Assembly: GCA_021790895.1 (NCBI GenBank)
Contig: JAJYFM010000020.1
Coordinates: 1 to 35,458 of the forward strand
Origin: a bacterium
GTDB lineage: Bacteria; Vulcanimicrobiota; Vulcanimicrobiia; Vulcanimicrobiales; Vulcanimicrobiaceae
Reading direction: 5' to 3'
Length of the DNA stretch: 35,458 nucleotides
The position numbers were made by a program, and so were the translations under genes. Below the pieces are notes generated by a model. That model did not search any database, was not told where the DNA came from, and saw only the letters and a list, made by a program, of their open reading frames with translations. Of this stretch, positions 21,854 through 35,458 are shown in pieces. Each line of letters starts with the position of its first letter. The first letter of the stretch is position 1.

Positions 21854-22888
21854 TTGTATCGTCCGCTGGTCACGCTCTCCGGCGTGTTATTCGCTGCCGC
21901 TCTCCTCGCCCTCGGCGCGCTGACGGGGTGTGGGCACGCAACGCCGATCTCCGCCGCGGCAAGCCCAACCGCCACCCCCGTCGTCCCATCGGTAACGGCG
22001 GAGTTCGCTCTTCCGACCAGTTCGGCTGGGGTCACGGCGCTTGCGATCGGAGCGAATAGTTCGATTTGGTTCACCGAGGGCTCGGCCGATAAGATCGGCC
22101 AACTCGAGACGACCGGCACGGTCGTCGATTATCCGCTGCCGACCGCCGGCGCACTGCCGAAGGATCTCGTAGCGGCGCCCGACGGAAACCTCTGGTTCAC
22201 CGAATACAACGGCAATAAGATCGGGAAGATCGGCATCTCCGGAACGACGATCGTCGAGTATGCACTGCCGACGGCGGGCTCCGAGCCCGATGGCATCACG
22301 GTGGGTTCCGACGGCGCGCTCTGGTTCACCGAGGCCGGCACCTCGAAGATCGGGCGCATCACGACTGCGGGAGCGATCACCGAATACACGATTCCAACCG
22401 CGAACGCCGACCCGACGAGCATTGCCGCCGGCAGCGACGGCGCGCTCTGGTTCACCGAATATAACGGCGCGAAGATCGGCCGTATCACGACCGCCGGCGC
22501 GATCAGCGAATATCCCGTCGCGGCGGGAAGCGAGCCGACCTCGATTCTCAGCGGAGCCGACGGCGCGCTCTGGTTCCTCGAACAAGGCACCAACAAGATC
22601 GGACGGATCCTCACCAACGGAACCGGGCTCACCGAGACCTCGCTCGCGGTTCCGACGGCTGCGACGCCGACGATCGGCGGGATCACCGAGGGCGCAGACA
22701 GCAACTTCTACTTCACCGATATCGCCGGCAACAAGATCGGCCAATACCTCAGCAACGGCGGCACGGTCACGGAGTATCCCATCACGACTGCAGCATCGAG
22801 CCCGCTCGCCATCGCGCTCGGCCCCGACCAACGCATCTACTTCAGCGAGAGCGCGGGGAATAAGATCGGGCAGCTCTCCTACTTCTAG
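21854..22888 (+). CDS. Lipoprotein with virginiamycin-B-lyase-like (Vgb/NHL) propeller repeats
   Basis: The protein has 344 residues. A signal peptide ends in the lipobox LTGC (about residue 25), followed by a Ser/Ala/Thr-rich spacer. About six or seven blades follow, each close to GSDGALWFTEYNGAKIGRI with a linker of the type TEYPIPT. This is the pattern of Vgb/streptogramin-lyase-like propellers. Most such secreted proteins have unknown ligands, and I would not call this an antibiotic lyase. The start is a TTG with AAGGAG 9 bases upstream. It lies on the plus strand between fliR and flhB, which are normally adjacent, so it is an insertion into the flagellar operon and opposes its transcription. 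Confidence 0.85.
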   Translation: MYRPLVTLSGVLFAAALLALGALTGCGHATPISAAASPTATPVVPSVTAEFALPTSSAGVTALAIGANSSIWFTEGSADKIGQLETTGTVVDYPLPTAGALPKDLVAAPDGNLWFTEYNGNKIGKIGISGTTIVEYALPTAGSEPDGITVGSDGALWFTEAGTSKIGRITTAGAITEYTIPTANADPTSIAAGSDGALWFTEYNGAKIGRITTAGAISEYPVAAGSEPTSILSGADGALWFLEQGTNKIGRILTNGTGLTETSLAVPTAATPTIGGITEGADSNFYFTDIAGNKIGQYLSNGGTVTEYPITTAASSPLAIALGPDQRIYFSESAGNKIGQLSYF

Positions 22889-28958: not shown

Positions 28959-30815
28959 TTAGTTCTCGCTCGCCTGCAAGTGCGTGACCGTGATCAGGTT
29001 CTGATCGGCGGTCGTGATGCCGCGGGTATTCGCTTCGAATGCACGTTGCGCCGCGATCATCTTGGTGAACTGATCGGCGAGAGAAACGTTGGATTGCTCC
29101 AGCGCTCCCGAGACGATCGAGCCGAGACTACCCGTCGAGGCAGTGCCGACCTGTGCGAGCCCGGAGTTCGCCGTTTGCTGGAAGAAATTGCTTCCGATAC
29201 GGTTGAGACCTTGCTCGTTTTGGAAGGTCGCCAGCGCGACTTGCGCGAGCGCCTTCTGCTGGCCGTTGGTGAACGATCCGGTGATCGTCCCATCCTGCCC
29301 GACCGTGATGTTCGAGAGGATGCCGGCCTGGTAGCCGTTCTGGGTGAGGGTATTGGCGGTATAGGTACCGGCCAAGCTCGCATCGTTCGAGAAGTCGAGC
29401 CCGATCGGCCCGAGTGCCGGCGTACCGGCACCGGCGGTCGGAGCGACCGAGTTGTTCCCGGTTCCCGGCCCCCACGAGGTGATGTTGAGCTGGTTGCCCT
29501 GTTGGGTCGACGTGAGGGCTCCGGCGGTATGGAAATCGCCGGTCTGTCCCGCCCCGCCGATCGAGGTGCCCGCGGCGGTCGACTCGATCGATGAGGTGTT
29601 GATGAACTGCCCGTTCTGGTCGAAGTAGGCGTAGCCCACCGTCCCGGCGGTTCCGGTTCCGTAGGTCGGTGCGGTGACCGCTCCGCCTGCGGCGACGCTT
29701 CCCGGCGTCTTGATCGTCTGGAAGGTGGTGCCGTCGGCGAAGCTGACGCTGACCTTCCAACGGGTCGCCGGTGTCCGCACGTTGCCGCTCGCGTCGGTGA
29801 CGCTCGCCGGCAATCCGCTCGTTCCTCCGGTCACACCGAGTGTCGTGCTCGAGCCCGCCGTCAGCGCGCCCGCAAGAGTGACCGTATCGGCGCCGATCTG
29901 AATGGTCGAACCCGCCGAAGCGGTCACCACCGCGCCGGAGTTGGAATCGACCAGTGTCGCCGCAGTACCCGTTCCGTTCACGGTAATTTGAATCGTATCG
30001 GCGGCTTGGGTCGTCGGGCTCACCGCTACGGTAGCGATATTGCCCGCCAGACCTGCCGTCACCGCGGTCGTCGCCGCGGTTGCACCCGCGGCATCGGGGG
30101 TGTAGGTGATCGTCGCTTGGTGCGCGACCCCGAGCGAATCGTAGATCGTCGTCGAGATCGTGTACGGCGAGCCGTTCGTCGGAGCGCCACCGACCGAGTA
30201 GTTGAGCGCCTGCGCCCACTGCGTCTGGTCGAGATTGCCGCCGAACGAGACGTCGAAGACCTTATCGGCCGACGTCGGGCCGGTCTTCACGCCGAATCCC
30301 GTTCCCGTCGCCTGCTCCTGCAGGCCGAGCGGAATCGTGATCGCACCCGGGGAGCCGGTCGGGCTGATCTGCCCCTGGGCGTTGGCCATGTAGCCCTGCA
30401 CCGCCAGGCCGCTGCCCGGATCGTAGAGCAGGCCGTTCTGGTTGAGCGAGAAGGCGCCGCTGCGCGTGTAGCTCGGCGTACCGGTTCCGTTTGCGTTCGC
30501 GAGCACGAAGAATCCGTTGCCGTTGATCGCGAGGTCGGTGTTGACGCCGGTCGTTTCGAGCCCGCCCTGATTGAAGAGCGTGTCGATGGTGTTGACCTTG
30601 ACGCCGAGACCGATCTCTTGCGGATTGACGCCGCCGCTGGTGGTCGTCGGGCCGCTGGCGTAGCCGATTTGGTTGTAGAACTGATCGGCGAACGTCATGC
30701 GCTGGCCTTTGAAGCCATAGGTGCCGATGTTCGCGATGTTGTTGCTCAGGAGATCGATCCAGCTCTGGTAAGCATTCAGGCCGGATATCCCCGTATAGAG
30801 CGAGTCAAATCCCAT
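28959..30815 (-). CDS. flgE: Flagellar hook protein FlgE
   Basis: The protein has 618 residues. The N-terminus has the rod/hook signature SLYTGISGLNAYQSWIDLLS followed by NNIANIGTYGFKGQRMTFAD. The C-terminus has the matching coiled-coil end (GALEQSNVSLADQFTKMIAA, then QRAFEANTRGITTADQNLI). The middle (about 200-480) is enlarged with Ala/Thr/Gly-rich beta segments, longer than the 400-odd residues of enterobacterial FlgE, and forms the outer hook domains. FlgE polymerises into the hook, in many copies. A GAGAGG-type Shine-Dalgarno precedes the ATG. The gene is bracketed by hairpins at 28905-28934 and 30873-30901, which suggests separate mRNA processing. Confidence 0.95.
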   Translation of the reverse strand: MGFDSLYTGISGLNAYQSWIDLLSNNIANIGTYGFKGQRMTFADQFYNQIGYASGPTTTSGGVNPQEIGLGVKVNTIDTLFNQGGLETTGVNTDLAINGNGFFVLANANGTGTPSYTRSGAFSLNQNGLLYDPGSGLAVQGYMANAQGQISPTGSPGAITIPLGLQEQATGTGFGVKTGPTSADKVFDVSFGGNLDQTQWAQALNYSVGGAPTNGSPYTISTTIYDSLGVAHQATITYTPDAAGATAATTAVTAGLAGNIATVAVSPTTQAADTIQITVNGTGTAATLVDSNSGAVVTASAGSTIQIGADTVTLAGALTAGSSTTLGVTGGTSGLPASVTDASGNVRTPATRWKVSVSFADGTTFQTIKTPGSVAAGGAVTAPTYGTGTAGTVGYAYFDQNGQFINTSSIESTAAGTSIGGAGQTGDFHTAGALTSTQQGNQLNITSWGPGTGNNSVAPTAGAGTPALGPIGLDFSNDASLAGTYTANTLTQNGYQAGILSNITVGQDGTITGSFTNGQQKALAQVALATFQNEQGLNRIGSNFFQQTANSGLAQVGTASTGSLGSIVSGALEQSNVSLADQFTKMIAAQRAFEANTRGITTADQNLITVTHLQASEN

Positions 30816-30872
30816 AGTTATTGACCTCTCAGTTGGGAAGCCCCGTGGTGCGTCATTCGATCGGCGCCACGG

Positions 30873-30901
30873 CCGAGGCTCCGCGCTGCGGTCCGCCTCG
30901 G
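30873..30901 (-). promoter_or_regulatory. Hairpin in the flgE 5' region
   Basis: CCGAGGC (30873-30879) and GCCTCGG (30895-30901) form a perfect 7-bp stem. Inside it CCGC and GCGG form a second 4-bp helix around a 3-base loop. It occupies the 103-base gap between the TIGR02530-type gene and flgE, the longest gap between neighbouring genes of the fliK-fliR block. No T tract follows, so partial termination or RNA processing is more likely than full termination. Confidence 0.5.
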
Positions 30902-30918
30902 ATGAGTGATAACGTGGT

Positions 30919-31314
30919 TCATGAGATCACCGCCGCCGAATCGATATTCGTAAAAATATTATCTTTTAACGAATTGCTATCGACTGCCGTGATCACGGTG
31001 CGATTGGTTACGCTGACCACCATCGCAACGTCGCGCAAGAGGAAGAGCGATTGCTTCGCTCCCTTTGCCGCTGCTTTGTCGGTCATGGCGTTAATTTTCG
31101 CGACATCTTCTTTTGACAGAGCGATGTTGCGCGATTGCAAACGCGCGGTAGCGTGCGCCGAAAAGCGCACGTCGCCGGAACTTGCGGTACGGTCGAGTAC
31201 CGAGCGAAAACTTTCGCCGGGGGGTATCTCAACCGGGCGCCCTACCGGACGCGGTGCAGGCCCCGGAAGGATCGTGCCGGGTTGTTGGACCGAGGCGATC
31301 TCTTTGGGATCCAT
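30919..31314 (-). CDS. Flagellar operon protein, TIGR02530-like
   Basis: The protein has 131 residues. The C-terminal two thirds match the small flagellar family found between flgD and flgE in Firmicutes-type operons: FSAHATARLQSRNIALSKED, then DKAAAKGAKQSLFLLRDVAM and VSVTNRTVITAVD. Its function is not established as far as I know; the position suggests a hook-assembly role. The N-terminal 40 residues are Pro-rich. The start lies 3 bases after the flgD stop. Confidence 0.82.
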   Translation of the reverse strand: MDPKEIASVQQPGTILPGPAPRPVGRPVEIPPGESFRSVLDRTASSGDVRFSAHATARLQSRNIALSKEDVAKINAMTDKAAAKGAKQSLFLLRDVAMVVSVTNRTVITAVDSNSLKDNIFTNIDSAAVIS

Positions 31315-31317
31315 CGT

Positions 31318-31800
31318 TTAGCTTCCGATACCGACGATCTGCTGCGTCGAGAACAGCAAGGGATTGCCGTTGTTATCGGTGAGCGGTTTTCCGTTGCTTC
31401 CGTTGAGGGTAAAGAACGGCTGCCCGTTCTGTACCGTAATCGAAGCGACGGTTCCGGTAACGGTCGACGCCCCGTTCGCAGTGCTGCTCGCGCCGGTATT
31501 GGCGGTGACAGTCTTCCCGAGGAGTGCGGCCGCTTGCATCACGCCGAAATTCGACGTGAAGGCCTGGAACGAGCTGGCGAGATTCGTCTGCGCGGAGAGC
31601 GCTTGGAACTGCGCGAGCTGCGTGACCGATTGCGTCGGATCCTGCGGCTGGGTTGGGTCTTGGTTCTGCAATTCTGCGGTGAGCAGTTGCAAGAACGTGT
31701 TGAGTCCGACGTCGGACGATTTGCTCGTCGGCGCCGCGTTGGTGGGTTGTGCGATCAACGAGTTAATCGGTAACGTCGTTGAATTCACAGATGTCGCCAT
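31318..31800 (-). CDS. flgD: Hook capping protein FlgD (short form)
   Basis: The protein has 160 residues from the ATG at 31800, with AAGGAG 6 bases upstream. A longer frame from 31989 overlaps fliK and is rejected. The conserved FlgD N-terminal region is present: TFLQLLTAELQNQDPTQPQD, then QLAQFQALSAQTNL. After about residue 100 only one small beta domain follows, so the tandem tudor/fibronectin-like domains of enterobacterial FlgD are reduced. FlgD caps the growing hook and guides FlgE insertion. It lies 10 bases after fliK. Confidence 0.93.
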   Translation of the reverse strand: MATSVNSTTLPINSLIAQPTNAAPTSKSSDVGLNTFLQLLTAELQNQDPTQPQDPTQSVTQLAQFQALSAQTNLASSFQAFTSNFGVMQAAALLGKTVTANTGASSTANGASTVTGTVASITVQNGQPFFTLNGSNGKPLTDNNGNPLLFSTQQIVGIGS

Positions 31801-31810
31801 TCTTTTCTCC

Positions 31811-33571
31811 TTAGGCGAGATAGTTATAGAGCGCATTTCCGTCGGCGGAGAGCATCCCCGCGTTCGAAGATACGAGCGCATCGGTCGGTTGTGCCGCCGG
31901 TGCACCGAGTTCGTGAATCGTGTAGCGGCGACCGAGGCCTGGGCCTTTACCGTCGCCTCCGCGATCCTGATGTTTCCCGCCCGAGACATCGACCGAGAAG
32001 CCGGTCAATTTCAGACCGGAATCGGCGAGACTTCGCGCGAGTTGTTGGTGGTTGGCAAGCAACGTCGCGCGCGTGTCGGCGCTCTGTGCGACGACATTGG
32101 CCGTGACGTTGGTACCGCTCACCGTGAGTTTGACCGCCACCTCCCCGAGATGCTCGGGAACGAGTTTGATCTGCATCTGCGAACTGCCGTCGGAGGCGGT
32201 GCGCATCTGCATACCGGCGACCATTTGTTCGACGAGCGCCTGCACGTCGAGCGGTTGCGAGGTCGGCGTGGCAGCGCCCGGCGCTGCAACGTTCGCTGCG
32301 GCGTGCAGCGGTGGGAGCGTGAAGCCGAGCGCCGCGTTCGACGCCTGGTTTCCGAACGAGGAAGAATCGCGCCCCGTCGACGAGCCGAAGCCCGAGGAGA
32401 GATGCGATCCGGTCGAGCCCGCGCCGCTCTCGGCTGCAGCCGTCAGCATCGCCGTCAAGCGAAGCATCTGGTTGGAATCGAGTTGGCTCGAGCCGGTGCT
32501 GCCGGTGAGGCTCGCGCTTGCGAGATTCGCCGATGCGAAGTTCTCGGTTGCGAAGCTCGTCGGCGACGAGGGTTCCCCGGCAGCGGCCCGCGCCGCGGTC
32601 AGGGTTGCGTCGGTACTCGCTGCACGGGCGATCATACGTCCGAGCAGGTCGAGGCTCTGCCCCGCGTTTGCGTTCGGGGCGGAGTTCGGGGCGGAGTTCG
32701 AAGCGACGCTCAACGGCTCGTTGCGACTCGGCGACTCCGGCGCCGCCCCCGCGTGCGGGGCCGGCAATGGTGGAGGCGCCGCGAAGTTCGCGAGCGAGGT
32801 TGGGAGCGCAGCCTTGAGGCTCGGCGTCGGCGGTGCCGTCATCGGCTTCGGGGCCGTTCGGGGGGCGTTGCCCGGGGGCGGAGCCGTGGCGGCGTTCGGT
32901 GCGAGGCTCGGAGCGGGATTGCCGGCGGCACTTGGGCCGGTTGCGATCGCGTTCGAGAGCATGTCGCTTGGAAGCAACGAGAGCAACGACGAAATCACCG
33001 CATCGATCGCGGGCGTACTCGCGGTCGGCGGGGTGGTCGTCGTCGTTGGGGCCGGGGGTTCTTTCGCCGATATGGCGTCCAAGAGCGTACCCGAGATCTC
33101 GTTCTTCTGCCCCTTGCTGGTCGTCTGCCCTCGCGCTAATCCGTTAACGATTCCGGTGAAGCGTTGCACGAGGGTCGCAGCTTCTTGCTGCGCCGACGTC
33201 GGTGGCGCCGTACCGGGTGGAGAGAGCGCGCTGGCAAATGCAGTTGCGAATTGTTTCGCTACTGCAGCCCTCGCGACAGGGGGTGCTTTGGCAGCCGTGG
33301 CCGCCGCTTGCCCGATCTGCGTCGAGAGCGTGTGGATGAATTCGGCAGGGGAGAGACCGCTTGCGAAAAGCGATGCGAGCGCAGCCGTTGGATCGGATGG
33401 AACCGACGACTTCGCCGCTTTCAATCGAGCCTCCAACGCTGCCGCGAAGGAACCACCGAAGATATCGGTGCCGCCGCGAAACGCCGAGAGATCGAATGCC
33501 TTCAGCAAGGCTTGGAGGCCGATCGCCTCCGTGGGTGCGGCTCTGCCGCTGCCGAGAAGTGGAGTTGTTAT
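31811..33571 (-). CDS. fliK: Flagellar hook-length control protein FliK, probable ATA start
   Basis: The C-terminal Flg_hook domain is clear: QMQIKLVPEHLGEVAVKLTV, then ANVVAQSADTRATLLANHQQ and LARSLADSGLKLTGFSVDV. The rest is long, disordered and Ala/Pro/Ser/Thr-rich, as expected of a molecular ruler. FliK is exported, measures hook length and triggers the FlhB switch. The first ordinary start codon is a TTG at 33508 with no Shine-Dalgarno. Upstream, AAGGAGG (33581-33587) is followed after 9 bases by ATA (33569-33571), in frame and open. This gives 586 residues beginning (M)TTPLLGSGRAAPTEAIGLQ. An ATA start, or a sequence error for ATG, is the simplest reading. Family certain, start uncertain. 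Confidence 0.9.
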   Translation of the reverse strand: MTTPLLGSGRAAPTEAIGLQALLKAFDLSAFRGGTDIFGGSFAAALEARLKAAKSSVPSDPTAALASLFASGLSPAEFIHTLSTQIGQAAATAAKAPPVARAAVAKQFATAFASALSPPGTAPPTSAQQEAATLVQRFTGIVNGLARGQTTSKGQKNEISGTLLDAISAKEPPAPTTTTTPPTASTPAIDAVISSLLSLLPSDMLSNAIATGPSAAGNPAPSLAPNAATAPPPGNAPRTAPKPMTAPPTPSLKAALPTSLANFAAPPPLPAPHAGAAPESPSRNEPLSVASNSAPNSAPNANAGQSLDLLGRMIARAASTDATLTAARAAAGEPSSPTSFATENFASANLASASLTGSTGSSQLDSNQMLRLTAMLTAAAESGAGSTGSHLSSGFGSSTGRDSSSFGNQASNAALGFTLPPLHAAANVAAPGAATPTSQPLDVQALVEQMVAGMQMRTASDGSSQMQIKLVPEHLGEVAVKLTVSGTNVTANVVAQSADTRATLLANHQQLARSLADSGLKLTGFSVDVSGGKHQDRGGDGKGPGLGRRYTIHELGAPAAQPTDALVSSNAGMLSADGNALYNYLA

Positions 33572-33608: not shown

Positions 33609-33636
33609 TTATCGGCCGACGAGCAGCGGCTCCTTA
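33609..33636 (-). promoter_or_regulatory. Possible sigma28-type promoter for fliK
   Basis: GCCGATAA (33609-33616) equals the flagellar sigma28 (FliA/SigD) -10 consensus and overlaps the aroF stop codon. A weak TAAG -35 (33633-33636) lies 16 bases upstream instead of the ideal TAAA at 15. A start near 33600 would place the fliK Shine-Dalgarno about 13 bases downstream. GCCGATAA also occurs at several intragenic sites in this window, so the motif alone is weak evidence. Confidence 0.3.
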
Positions 33637-34427
33637 ACCGCCTCGCGCAGTGCGCCGAGCCGCCGGGTAAAGCCGGCGAACTCCTCGGGTGCAAGCGCTT
33701 GCTCGGCATCGGAGAGCGCCGCCGCCGGTTCCGGATGGACCTCGAGAATCGCGCCGTCGAGCCCGGCCGCTACGGCGGCGAGCGCCATCGGCACGACGAG
33801 CGAGCGACGCCCGGTGGCGTGGCTGGGGTCGACGATGACGGGGAGATGGGTGAGTTCGCGCAACCGGAGCGCGCCGGCAAGATCGAAGAGGTTGCGGGTG
33901 TGCCGATCGAAGCCGCGCAGCCCGCGTTCGCAGAGCACGACCTGCGCGTTGCCTTCCATCAAGATGTACTCGGCGGCAGCGAGCACTTCGTCGAGCGTGG
34001 CGGCGGGGCCGCGTTTGAGCAGAATCGCCTTGCCGGTTCGTCCGGCGGCCCGTAGGAGGGCGACGTTCTGCATGTTCCGCGCCCCAATCTGCAGCATCGC
34101 AACGCGCGCGGAGACGAACGGCACGTCCTCGACGGCGAGGACTTCGACGACCGTCGGAAGTGCGTGCCGAGCGGCGGCGCGCTCGATGAGCAGCACGCCT
34201 TCATCTCCGAGTCCTTGGAAGCTGTACGGCGAGGTGCGCGGCTTGTAGGCGCCGCCGCGGAGCATCGCCGCTCCGCCCGCCGCGAGCAGCTCGGCCGCGC
34301 GTTCGATCTGCGCCTCGCTCTCGATCGCGCAGGGGCCGCCGATGGCGACGAAACCGCCATCCCCAAAACGCACGCCGGCGACCTCGACGACGCTGCGTTG
34401 CCCGTTGAATGCTGTGAGTGGGTACAC
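33609..34427 (-). CDS. aroF: 3-deoxy-7-phosphoheptulonate (DAHP) synthase, type I beta
   Basis: The protein has 272 residues from the GTG at 34427. It condenses phosphoenolpyruvate and erythrose-4-phosphate, the first step of aromatic amino-acid synthesis. Visible motifs are IGGPCAIES (metal-ligand Cys), the substrate loop KPRTSPYSFQGLG, ILLKRGPAAT, DPSHATGRRSLV (metal-ligand His) and LEVHPEP (metal-ligand Glu). There is almost nothing before the barrel, so the N-terminal ferredoxin-like feedback domain is missing, and there is no chorismate mutase domain. Allosteric control is therefore probably weak, which fits the attenuator upstream. A GGAG lies 8 bases before the GTG. A longer frame from 34577 is rejected because it runs through the terminator hairpin. 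fliK follows 37 bases downstream with no terminator. Confidence 0.94.
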   Translation of the reverse strand: MYPLTAFNGQRSVVEVAGVRFGDGGFVAIGGPCAIESEAQIERAAELLAAGGAAMLRGGAYKPRTSPYSFQGLGDEGVLLIERAAARHALPTVVEVLAVEDVPFVSARVAMLQIGARNMQNVALLRAAGRTGKAILLKRGPAATLDEVLAAAEYILMEGNAQVVLCERGLRGFDRHTRNLFDLAGALRLRELTHLPVIVDPSHATGRRSLVVPMALAAVAAGLDGAILEVHPEPAAALSDAEQALAPEEFAGFTRRLGALREAVKEPLLVGR

Positions 34428-34471: not shown

Positions 34472-34498
34472 AAAAAAACCGCCCGGCGATACGGACGG
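34472..34498 (-). terminator. Attenuator terminator of the aroF leader
   Basis: On the minus strand CCGTCCG (34498-34492) pairs with CGGGCGG (34485-34479), 7 bp including one G-U pair, with a 6-base loop. Seven Ts (34478-34472) follow immediately. It is a textbook intrinsic terminator placed between a Trp-rich leader peptide and the aroF gene. Confidence 0.88.
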
Positions 34499-34534
34499 CC
34501 TCTACGAACGATCCCTCGCGGGAGCGACGACGAC

Positions 34535-34600
34535 CTACCTCACCGGCGAATACGCTCCGGAGAGTTGCCACCACCACGCGAACGTGCGATGCGTCATCAT
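34535..34600 (-). CDS. Aromatic-amino-acid attenuator leader peptide (TrpL-like)
   Basis: A 21-codon frame reads MMTHRTFAWWWQLSGAYSPV then R and a TAG stop at 34535-34537. Three consecutive Trp codons lie at 34568-34576, with one Phe before and one Tyr after, so all three end products of the pathway are sensed or sampled. The intrinsic terminator begins 36 bases after the stop, and aroF is next. In ribosome-mediated attenuation, a stall at Trp codons during tryptophan shortage lets an antiterminator form. A 6-bp pairing, GGAGCG (34553-34558) with CGCTCC (34521-34526), is a candidate alternative stem, but I could not assign the full antiterminator by eye. The predicted transcript start lies only about 4 bases before the first ATG, so translation may be almost leaderless. 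Confidence 0.88.
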   Translation of the reverse strand: MMTHRTFAWWWQLSGAYSPVR

Positions 34601-34609
34601 GTATCGCGC

Positions 34610-34638
34610 ATGGTACAGGGCCGCGGCCGGGTTGTCAA
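34610..34638 (-). promoter_or_regulatory. Sigma70-type promoter of the aroF leader
   Basis: A perfect -35 TTGACA (34633-34638) and a -10 TACCAT (34610-34615) are separated by exactly 17 bases. The expected start is near A34604, which puts the leader-peptide ATG about 4 bases into the message. Confidence 0.8.
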
Positions 34639-34976: not shown

Positions 34977-35458
34977 TCATGAACCAGGCGGAACTGTGGA
35001 AAATCGGCCCGTTGGGTTCGATTCTACCGACCGCGCATACTCGTTTGGCGTTTTGTTCGCCAACATTGAGTGCGGTCGAAATTCATTATACTCGATCCGC
35101 CAAATTCGCGCAGCCCGGCGAGCCTCGTCGAGGGTCTCAAAATAGGAGGGGTTGAGGAACTCGCGCCGGACGCCGCCGTTAAACGATTCGATAAACGCAT
35201 TGTCGGTCGGCGTTCCCGGTCGCGAGAAATCGACTTGTACTTTATTCGCATACGCCCACTGATCAACGGGCGTCGCGACGAATTCTGTTCCGTTATCGCA
35301 ACGGATCGCTTTGGGCAGGCCGCGTTCCCGGCAGGCGGTCTTCAACACGCGGACGACATCTTCGGAGCGAAAGGATTGCGCCACCTCCATGGCCACGCAT
35401 TCGCGCGAGAAGATGTCGACGATGTTCAACAGACGGTACGAACGTTGGTCGGCAAGTC
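34977..35458 (-). mobile_element. IS3-family transposase (OrfB), C-terminal part, runs off the right edge
   Basis: The frame is open to the window edge. It begins inside the protein with LADQRSYRLLNIVDIFSREC, so the TTG at 35429 is not the true start. The integrase (rve) core shows the second catalytic Asp in CDNGTEF and the catalytic Glu in AFIESFNGGVRREFLNPSYF, followed by the conserved tail YNEFRPHSMLANKTPNEYA. This is the DDE layout of IS3-family OrfB. The first catalytic Asp is probably the one in LLNIVDIFSRE. Its usual partner OrfA and the left end lie beyond the window. The C-terminus looks intact, so the element may be active. Confidence 0.9.

What the first reader, a model, noticed from the sequence alone, without database searches (positions are those of the whole stretch)
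34472..34638. Complete ribosome-mediated attenuator with a WWW leader peptide controlling a DAHP synthase
Seen: consensus TTGACA-17-TACCAT promoter, 21-codon leader with Phe, three tandem Trp and Tyr codons, then a 7-bp hairpin with T7, then aroF. Known: this is the architecture of trp/phe attenuators of biosynthetic operons in proteobacteria and actinobacteria. Inferred: the enzyme lacks its allosteric domain, so expression control replaces feedback inhibition. A single leader with all three aromatic codons ahead of a DAHP synthase, outside a trp operon, in this lineage appears unusual.
Basis: partly seen in the sequence, partly recalled or inferred. Interest (0 to 1): 0.85.

Follow-up and report, generated by a model that had tools for sequence, protein, structure and literature searches.

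The report
Trp-codon attenuator ahead of DAHP synthase
The window holds a genuine RNA switch in which a ribosome reading tryptophan codons decides whether the first enzyme of aromatic amino acid synthesis is transcribed; it is one of many such switches in this little-studied bacterial lineage, and in seven genera it stands at the head of a flagellar gene cluster.

Summary
Confirmed. The leader ORF (34600-34535, minus strand), TTGACA-17-TACCAT promoter, terminator (34498-34472) and aroF (GTG 34427) are all present. The leader recurs in 32 genomes of 13 genera, always upstream of one monophyletic aroF clade. Control codons are Trp plus Tyr (WWW, WWCW, YSYWW, YWYW). The window's Tyr17 is His in seven sister species, so "all three aromatics" is overstated. 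This pairing is conserved with compensatory changes, and the element is read in all three reading frames, so selection acts on RNA. The leader ORF starts 7-10 nt after the -10 box without a Shine-Dalgarno sequence (predicted leaderless). Best reading: canonical ribosome-mediated transcription attenuation (about 0.92; no experiment). It is one member of a lineage-wide set (apparently Eremiobacterota/Vulcanimicrobiota): the same design, with codons matched to the gene, precedes proC, hom, pheA-aroF, trpE, trpD, trpS, aroA, tyrA, ilvA/B/C/E, leuA, metY, cysH, ssuA and sulfite reductase. None matches Rfam. In seven genera aroF is followed, without an obvious promoter or terminator, by fliK-flgD-flgE-motAB-fliM.

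The parts
34610..34638 (-). sigma-70-type promoter TTGACA-17-TACCAT of the leader transcript
   Evidence: same promoter at the same place in all 30 orthologous loci examined
34535..34600 (-). leader ORF MMTHRTFAWWWQLSGAYSPVR*, predicted leaderless (9 nt from the -10 box, no SD)
34568..34576 (-). three tandem Trp control codons (TGG TGG TGG)
   Evidence: WWW, WWCW, YSYWW or YWYW at this place in 13 genera
34557..34564 (-). CTCTCCGG, partner of the leader-end element in the ribosome-free fold (1:2 hairpin)
   Evidence: minimum free energy fold; comparative support not quantified
34538..34546 (-). leader-end element CCGGTGAGG (region 2), codons Pro-Val-Arg just before the stop codon
34524..34534 (-). 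3' arm of long-range helix P1 (GTCGTCGTCGC), pairs with the leader start GATGAC at 34598-34593
   Evidence: analogous helices seen by eye in other genera
34483..34488 (-). CGCCGG (region 3) in terminator loop and 3' arm, complementary to CCGGTG at 34546-34541
34472..34498 (-). intrinsic terminator CCGTCCG-TATCGC-CGGGCGG-T7 (3:4)
33609..34427 (-). aroF, type I-beta DAHP synthase without N-terminal regulatory domain, GTG start
31811..33508 (-). fliK (PF02120), next gene; probable real start ATA at 33571-33569 after SD AAGGAGG; no promoter or terminator found between aroF and it
28959..31989 (-). flgD, a PF12611 protein and flgE, following fliK in the same order in seven genera

Best explanation
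This is a ribosome-mediated transcription attenuator. RNA polymerase starts a few bases before the leader ATG, so the ribosome loads on an almost leaderless message (inferred). If charged tRNA-Trp (and in other genera tRNA-Tyr) is scarce, the ribosome stalls on the Trp run, 22-30 nt upstream of the leader-end element CCGGTGAGG. The element is then free to pair with CGCCGG in the terminator loop and 3' arm, the terminator is disrupted, and transcription proceeds into aroF. If the amino acid is plentiful, the ribosome runs to the stop codon, covers CCGGTGAGG, the terminator forms and transcription ends. Without a ribosome the element is held by upstream hairpins and termination is the default in most leaders. 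Shown: the parts, their conservation, and the compensated pairing. Inferred: the kinetics and the response to starvation. In this genus the switch also heads the fliK-flgD-flgE-motAB-fliM cluster, so polymerase that escapes it may continue into flagellar genes (possible, not shown).
For: All parts are present and in order. The leader occurs in 32 genomes of 13 genera, and every aroF of the clade examined has it; the clade is one group in the tree with support 100/99. Codons at the control position vary between Trp and Tyr. RNAalifold, given no hint, returns the leader-end to terminator-loop helix as the only consensus structure. On the mixed alignment of four gene families 96.7% of cells pair, three of six pairs have two-sided changes, no shuffle of 500 reaches the covariation score, and slid versions pair 20-49%. 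The aroF-only alignment is weaker but agrees. The element is read as PVR*, AGE or CR* in three frames, so the peptide is not what is conserved. Folding from a ribosome stalled on Trp up to mid-terminator gives the antiterminator with mean pair probability >= 0.6 in 26 of 30; the ribosome-free leader does so in 8 of 30; with the ribosome on the stop codon the terminator forms at >= 0.9 in all 30. The same design with other codons precedes other amino acid genes, codons matching genes.
Against: No expression, TSS or starvation data. The window's own antiterminator is weaker than its sisters' (one G-U pair; mean pair probability 0.21 in the stalled fold), and L112, L117 and L119 are also low. At equilibrium the terminator wins in nearly all leaders even when the ribosome is stalled, so antitermination must be kinetic. 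In g7, g50 and g52 the leader continues about 30 nt past the element, so a ribosome at the stop codon would not cover it directly. The leader's overall folding energy is ordinary.
Confidence: 0.92

Rival explanations
1. The leader peptide is translated, but control is of translation or by Rho, and the hairpin is an ordinary or constitutive terminator.
For: Some actinobacterial leaders have no obvious intrinsic terminator (PMC1262725); the folding energy of the window leader is ordinary.
Against: A terminator with a T-rich tail is present in all 30 aroF loci; its loop co-varies with the leader end; the aroF start lies beyond the terminator with its own SD in 23 of 30.
Confidence: 0.04
2. A protein or tRNA-binding RNA (T-box, TRAP-like) controls the terminator and the ORF is incidental.
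For: T-boxes control aromatic genes in Firmicutes (general knowledge).
Against: No Rfam family matches the window or 20 related loci; Trp/Tyr codons are conserved while the rest of the peptide is not; leaders of other genes carry codons of their own amino acid.
Confidence: 0.02
3. The small ORF encodes a functional peptide and the RNA pairing is a by-product.
For: S. meliloti peTrpL acts in trans (PMC7298713).
Against: The end of the peptide is read in three different frames while the RNA stays the same.
Confidence: 0.02

Closest known systems
trp operon attenuators of Corynebacterium and Streptomyces (PMC1262725)
   Same: Leader with double or triple UGG codons, GC-rich terminator, conserved complementary triple forming alternative hairpins
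   Different: They precede trp operons (and trpS); here aroF, in another phylum, with mixed Trp/Tyr codons and a different conserved core
S. meliloti trpL-trpE(G) attenuator (PMC7298713)
   Same: Trp codons and a leaderless leader ORF (the RNA starts at the ATG)
   Different: Different gene and lineage; sequence relationship not tested
E. coli trpL attenuator (Rfam Trp_leader)
   Same: Same logic: region 2 freed by stalling, masked by the ribosome at the stop codon
   Different: No Rfam match; predicted leaderless; E. coli aroF and aroG are controlled by TyrR and aroH by TrpR instead (general knowledge)

Membership tests
ribosome-mediated transcription attenuator | short leader ORF rich in codons cognate to the regulated pathway | tested here: met
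   lineage-wide permutation test
ribosome-mediated transcription attenuator | intrinsic terminator between leader ORF and structural gene | tested here: met
   30 of 30 aroF loci have a hairpin plus T-rich tail; window
ribosome-mediated transcription attenuator | mutually exclusive antiterminator that uses part of the terminator | tested here: met
   (compensatory changes, slide controls)
ribosome-mediated transcription attenuator | antiterminator arm lies under the ribosome at the leader stop codon | tested here: inconclusive
   met where the element directly precedes or contains the stop codon (window and most genera); not in g7, g50, g52, where the stop is about 30 nt further on
ribosome-mediated transcription attenuator | readthrough rises on starvation for the cognate amino acid | not testable with these tools
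   needs expression data
Rfam Trp leader or any other curated RNA family | match at gathering score | tested here: not met
   no match
type I-beta DAHP synthase (AroF) | match to DAHP synthase family models | tested here: met
   PF00793 4.7e-69; TIGR01361 above cutoff

The most novel reading that the evidence does not exclude
This lineage controls much of its amino acid metabolism with one transferable, leaderless attenuator design whose control codons have been exchanged to suit each gene, and in seven genera its aromatic version has come to govern a flagellar hook and motor cluster through co-transcription with aroF, tying motility to Trp/Tyr supply.
Probability: 0.4. Interest if true: 0.8.

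Novelty: new member of a known kind. Interest (0 to 1): 0.6.

Why it matters
Attenuation is best described in proteobacteria and actinobacteria. Here a phylum with almost no regulatory data appears to use it across aromatic, branched-chain, proline, aspartate-family and sulfur metabolism. The codons themselves report which amino acid a gene answers to, which helps to annotate unknown genes (a poly-Tyr leader precedes a CADD/PqqC-like protein of unknown function). The link from an aromatic attenuator to a conserved aroF-fliK-flgD-flgE-motAB-fliM order would, if co-transcribed, be an unexpected route from amino acid supply to motility. A cultured relative may make direct tests possible.

Tried and rejected
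Single-sequence folding energy gave no support. A short DNA pattern for the leader-end element was uninformative: control matches were as frequent. I first took the DAHP synthase paralogues to lack leaders; this was wrong for the PheA-AroF fusions, whose leaders lie upstream of the pheA part. The broad alignment A3 gave no consensus helix because MAFFT misplaces variable leaders and loops, so model R3 scores sequence only; several weak hits of the models (L161, L202, L211, L215) look false and were dropped. In the complementarity test on other genes eight leaders were cut from the wrong offset and score near zero; they were left in, which is conservative. Literature searches found no report of an aroF attenuator in this phylum or of an aroF-flagellar operon, but the library holds open-access papers only.

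Full report
Observation. The minus strand holds TTGACA (34638-34633), a 17-nt spacer, TACCAT (34615-34610), the ORF MMTHRTFAWWWQLSGAYSPVR* (34600-34535), a hairpin CCGTCCG-TATCGC-CGGGCGG with T7 (34498-34472), and aroF from GTG 34427 to 33609. The promoter is the only promoter-like site in the region against 0.1 in shuffles. No Rfam family matches the window. The fold of the leader on its own is not exceptional (z -0.51), so the case rests on comparison.

Origin. The window is contig C146 of a 2.1 Mb, 84% complete assembly. Genomes of the same family share contig lengths with records titled Candidatus Eremiobacterota: G034:C171 with JAFAIW010000241.1, G022:C4 with DAIDGS010000004.1, G030:C50 with JAFAXE010000154.1. 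I therefore take the host to be Eremiobacterota (NCBI Vulcanimicrobiota). G017, one 3,508,363-bp contig, fits the 3.50 Mbp complete genome of Vulcanimicrobium alpinum (PMC9758169); this identity is not verified.

Orthologues. AroF proteins at least 64% identical to the window's exist in 13 genera of the family. All 30 loci read have a leader ORF with aromatic codons at the same place, a promoter and a terminator; two further genomes raise the number to 32. Control codons are WWW, WWCW, YSYWW or YWYW. In the window's genus the peptide is invariant except Tyr17, which is His in the other seven species. These AroF proteins form one group with support 100/99 among 57 sequences. The tandem Trp/Tyr run is thus the conserved signal; Phe is frequent but less regular.

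Antiterminator. The end of the leader carries CCGGTGAGG. Its first six bases pair with the loop and 3' arm of the terminator. RNAalifold returned exactly this helix as its only consensus structure. In a genus-level test with nine positions, own pairing scored 199 against 71-107 for slid registers and 194 on average for swapped genera (p 0.02). With proC, trpS and ssuA attenuators added, 96.7% of cells pair, three of six pairs show changes on both sides, no shuffle of 500 reaches the covariation score, and slid registers pair 20-49%. For aroF alone the signal is weaker but in the same direction. Examples are CTGGTGAGG with CCTCACCAG (L095), CCGGTGAGA with TCTCACCGG (L125), GGTAAG with CTTACC (L121) and CCGGTT with AACCGG (proC, L159). 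The element is translated as PVR, AGE or CR* in different genera, so selection is on the RNA.

Mechanism. Folding from just downstream of a ribosome stalled on the first Trp codon to mid-terminator gave the antiterminator with mean pair probability of at least 0.6 in 26 of 30 leaders; without a ribosome in 8 of 30; with the ribosome on the stop codon the terminator formed at 0.9 or more in all. Once the whole terminator is made it is the more stable in nearly all leaders, so the antiterminator must act kinetically. The window's own antiterminator is weaker than its sisters' (0.21). In g7, g50 and g52 the ORF runs about 30 nt further, and how the ribosome masks the element there is unclear.

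Leaderless start. In all 30 aroF loci the leader start lies 7-10 nt after the -10 hexamer (17 or 18-nt spacers), and only one has an SD-like sequence, whereas 23 of 30 aroF genes have one. The leader should therefore be translated from an almost leaderless RNA. This is known for S. meliloti trpL (PMC7298713), so it is not new in itself.

A family of attenuators. Model R1 (aroF only) also hit leaders of trpE, trpS, proC and ssuA-type genes. Models R2 and R3, extended with those and later finds, gave many more: pheA-aroF fusions (Tyr/Trp/Phe), trpD, tyrA, aroA, ilvB, ilvC, ilvE, ilvA, leuA, metY, a cystathionine synthase-type gene, cysH, sulfite reductase, peroxiredoxin, homoserine dehydrogenase and others. 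Gene names come from NCBIfam or Pfam matches of representatives. In the window's genome there are three: aroF, proC (G000:C110:22545-22706, leader MSLHSIPPCLPTPPPRVPAG) and homoserine dehydrogenase (C133:31906-32084, E 3.3e-6). Sixty leaders, one per genus and gene, chosen by me from the hits, have 0.25-0.36 cognate residues in their own class against 0.04-0.14 in others; 50 of 60 are assigned to the right class; no permutation of 100,000 comes near. In 50 leaders of other genes the terminator loop fits its own leader better than those of others (18.1 against 16.0, best of 300 swaps 17.6). Strong hits are confined to families f1 and f2 (one order), mostly weak in f3, and at chance level in the rest of the phylum. 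None of 20 loci matches Rfam. Whether the more distant members are homologous or similar by convergence I cannot say. Part of the set served to build the models, so their E-values are not independent.

Enzyme. AroF is a type I-beta DAHP synthase that starts at the catalytic domain. A second DAHP synthase (G000:C67) shows no aromatic leader in the 450 nt scanned. The idea that the attenuator replaces allostery is plausible but weakened by the attenuated PheA-AroF fusions.

Flagellar cluster. In g1, g21, g11, g28, g7, g52 and g50 aroF is followed by fliK, flgD, a PF12611 protein, flgE, motA, motB and fliM in the same order (motA, motB and fliM named from sequence by eye). In the loci scanned no promoter-like or terminator-like site lies between the attenuator and flgE, and fliK has a strong SD shortly after aroF in most. 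The scans cover sigma-70 promoters only. In g25, g51 and g15 aroF stands elsewhere but keeps its leader, so the switch belongs to aroF. Co-transcription and any effect on motility are unproven.

Verdict.

Noticed in passing
window 33508-17800 (-) and L281-L286, L289: aroF is the first gene of a conserved aroF-fliK-flgD-PF12611-flgE-motA-motB-fliM order in seven genera, with no promoter or terminator seen between the attenuator and flgE.
   Followed up: partly
window 33571-33569 (-); L283, L282, L281: fliK appears to begin at a non-AUG codon (ATA in g1 and g28, ATC in g11, ATT in g21) after a near-perfect SD, but at ATG in g7 and g52; this may limit FliK synthesis.
   Followed up: no
L172 = G000:C110:22300-25500 (attenuator 22545-22706): Proline-codon leader MSLHSIPPCLPTPPPRVPAG, GTG start, with the same design ahead of proC in the window's own genome and in sister species.
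   Followed up: yes
L186, L194, L200, L197, L247, L251: Poly-tyrosine leaders (e.g. FAYYYYYGYF) precede a conserved protein without Pfam or NCBIfam match; a low-confidence model (pLDDT 56) is closest to Chlamydia CADD and PqqC. A CADD-like enzyme that draws on tyrosine is a testable guess.
   Followed up: partly
L268 (G117:C19), L231 (G017): Cys-run leaders (MCCCLC, MLLCCCLLMAC) ahead of a peroxiredoxin and a sulfite reductase: apparent cysteine attenuators of redox and sulfur genes.
   Followed up: partly
L234 (G017:C1:2679071-2679233), L214: Leader MFAHGVITTTMTTTLG ahead of homoserine dehydrogenase; in the window's genome the homoserine dehydrogenase leader has Met, Thr and Cys codons instead.
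   Followed up: partly
L203 (G110:C138:43156-43333): Cys-rich leader MNPGRSLCLGCRCRCFHEDVV ahead of a fatty acid desaturase; the link is unexplained.
   Followed up: no
window 34977-35456 (-): Fragment of an integrase-type transposase (rve, rve_3) lies directly upstream of the aroF promoter at the contig end.
   Followed up: no
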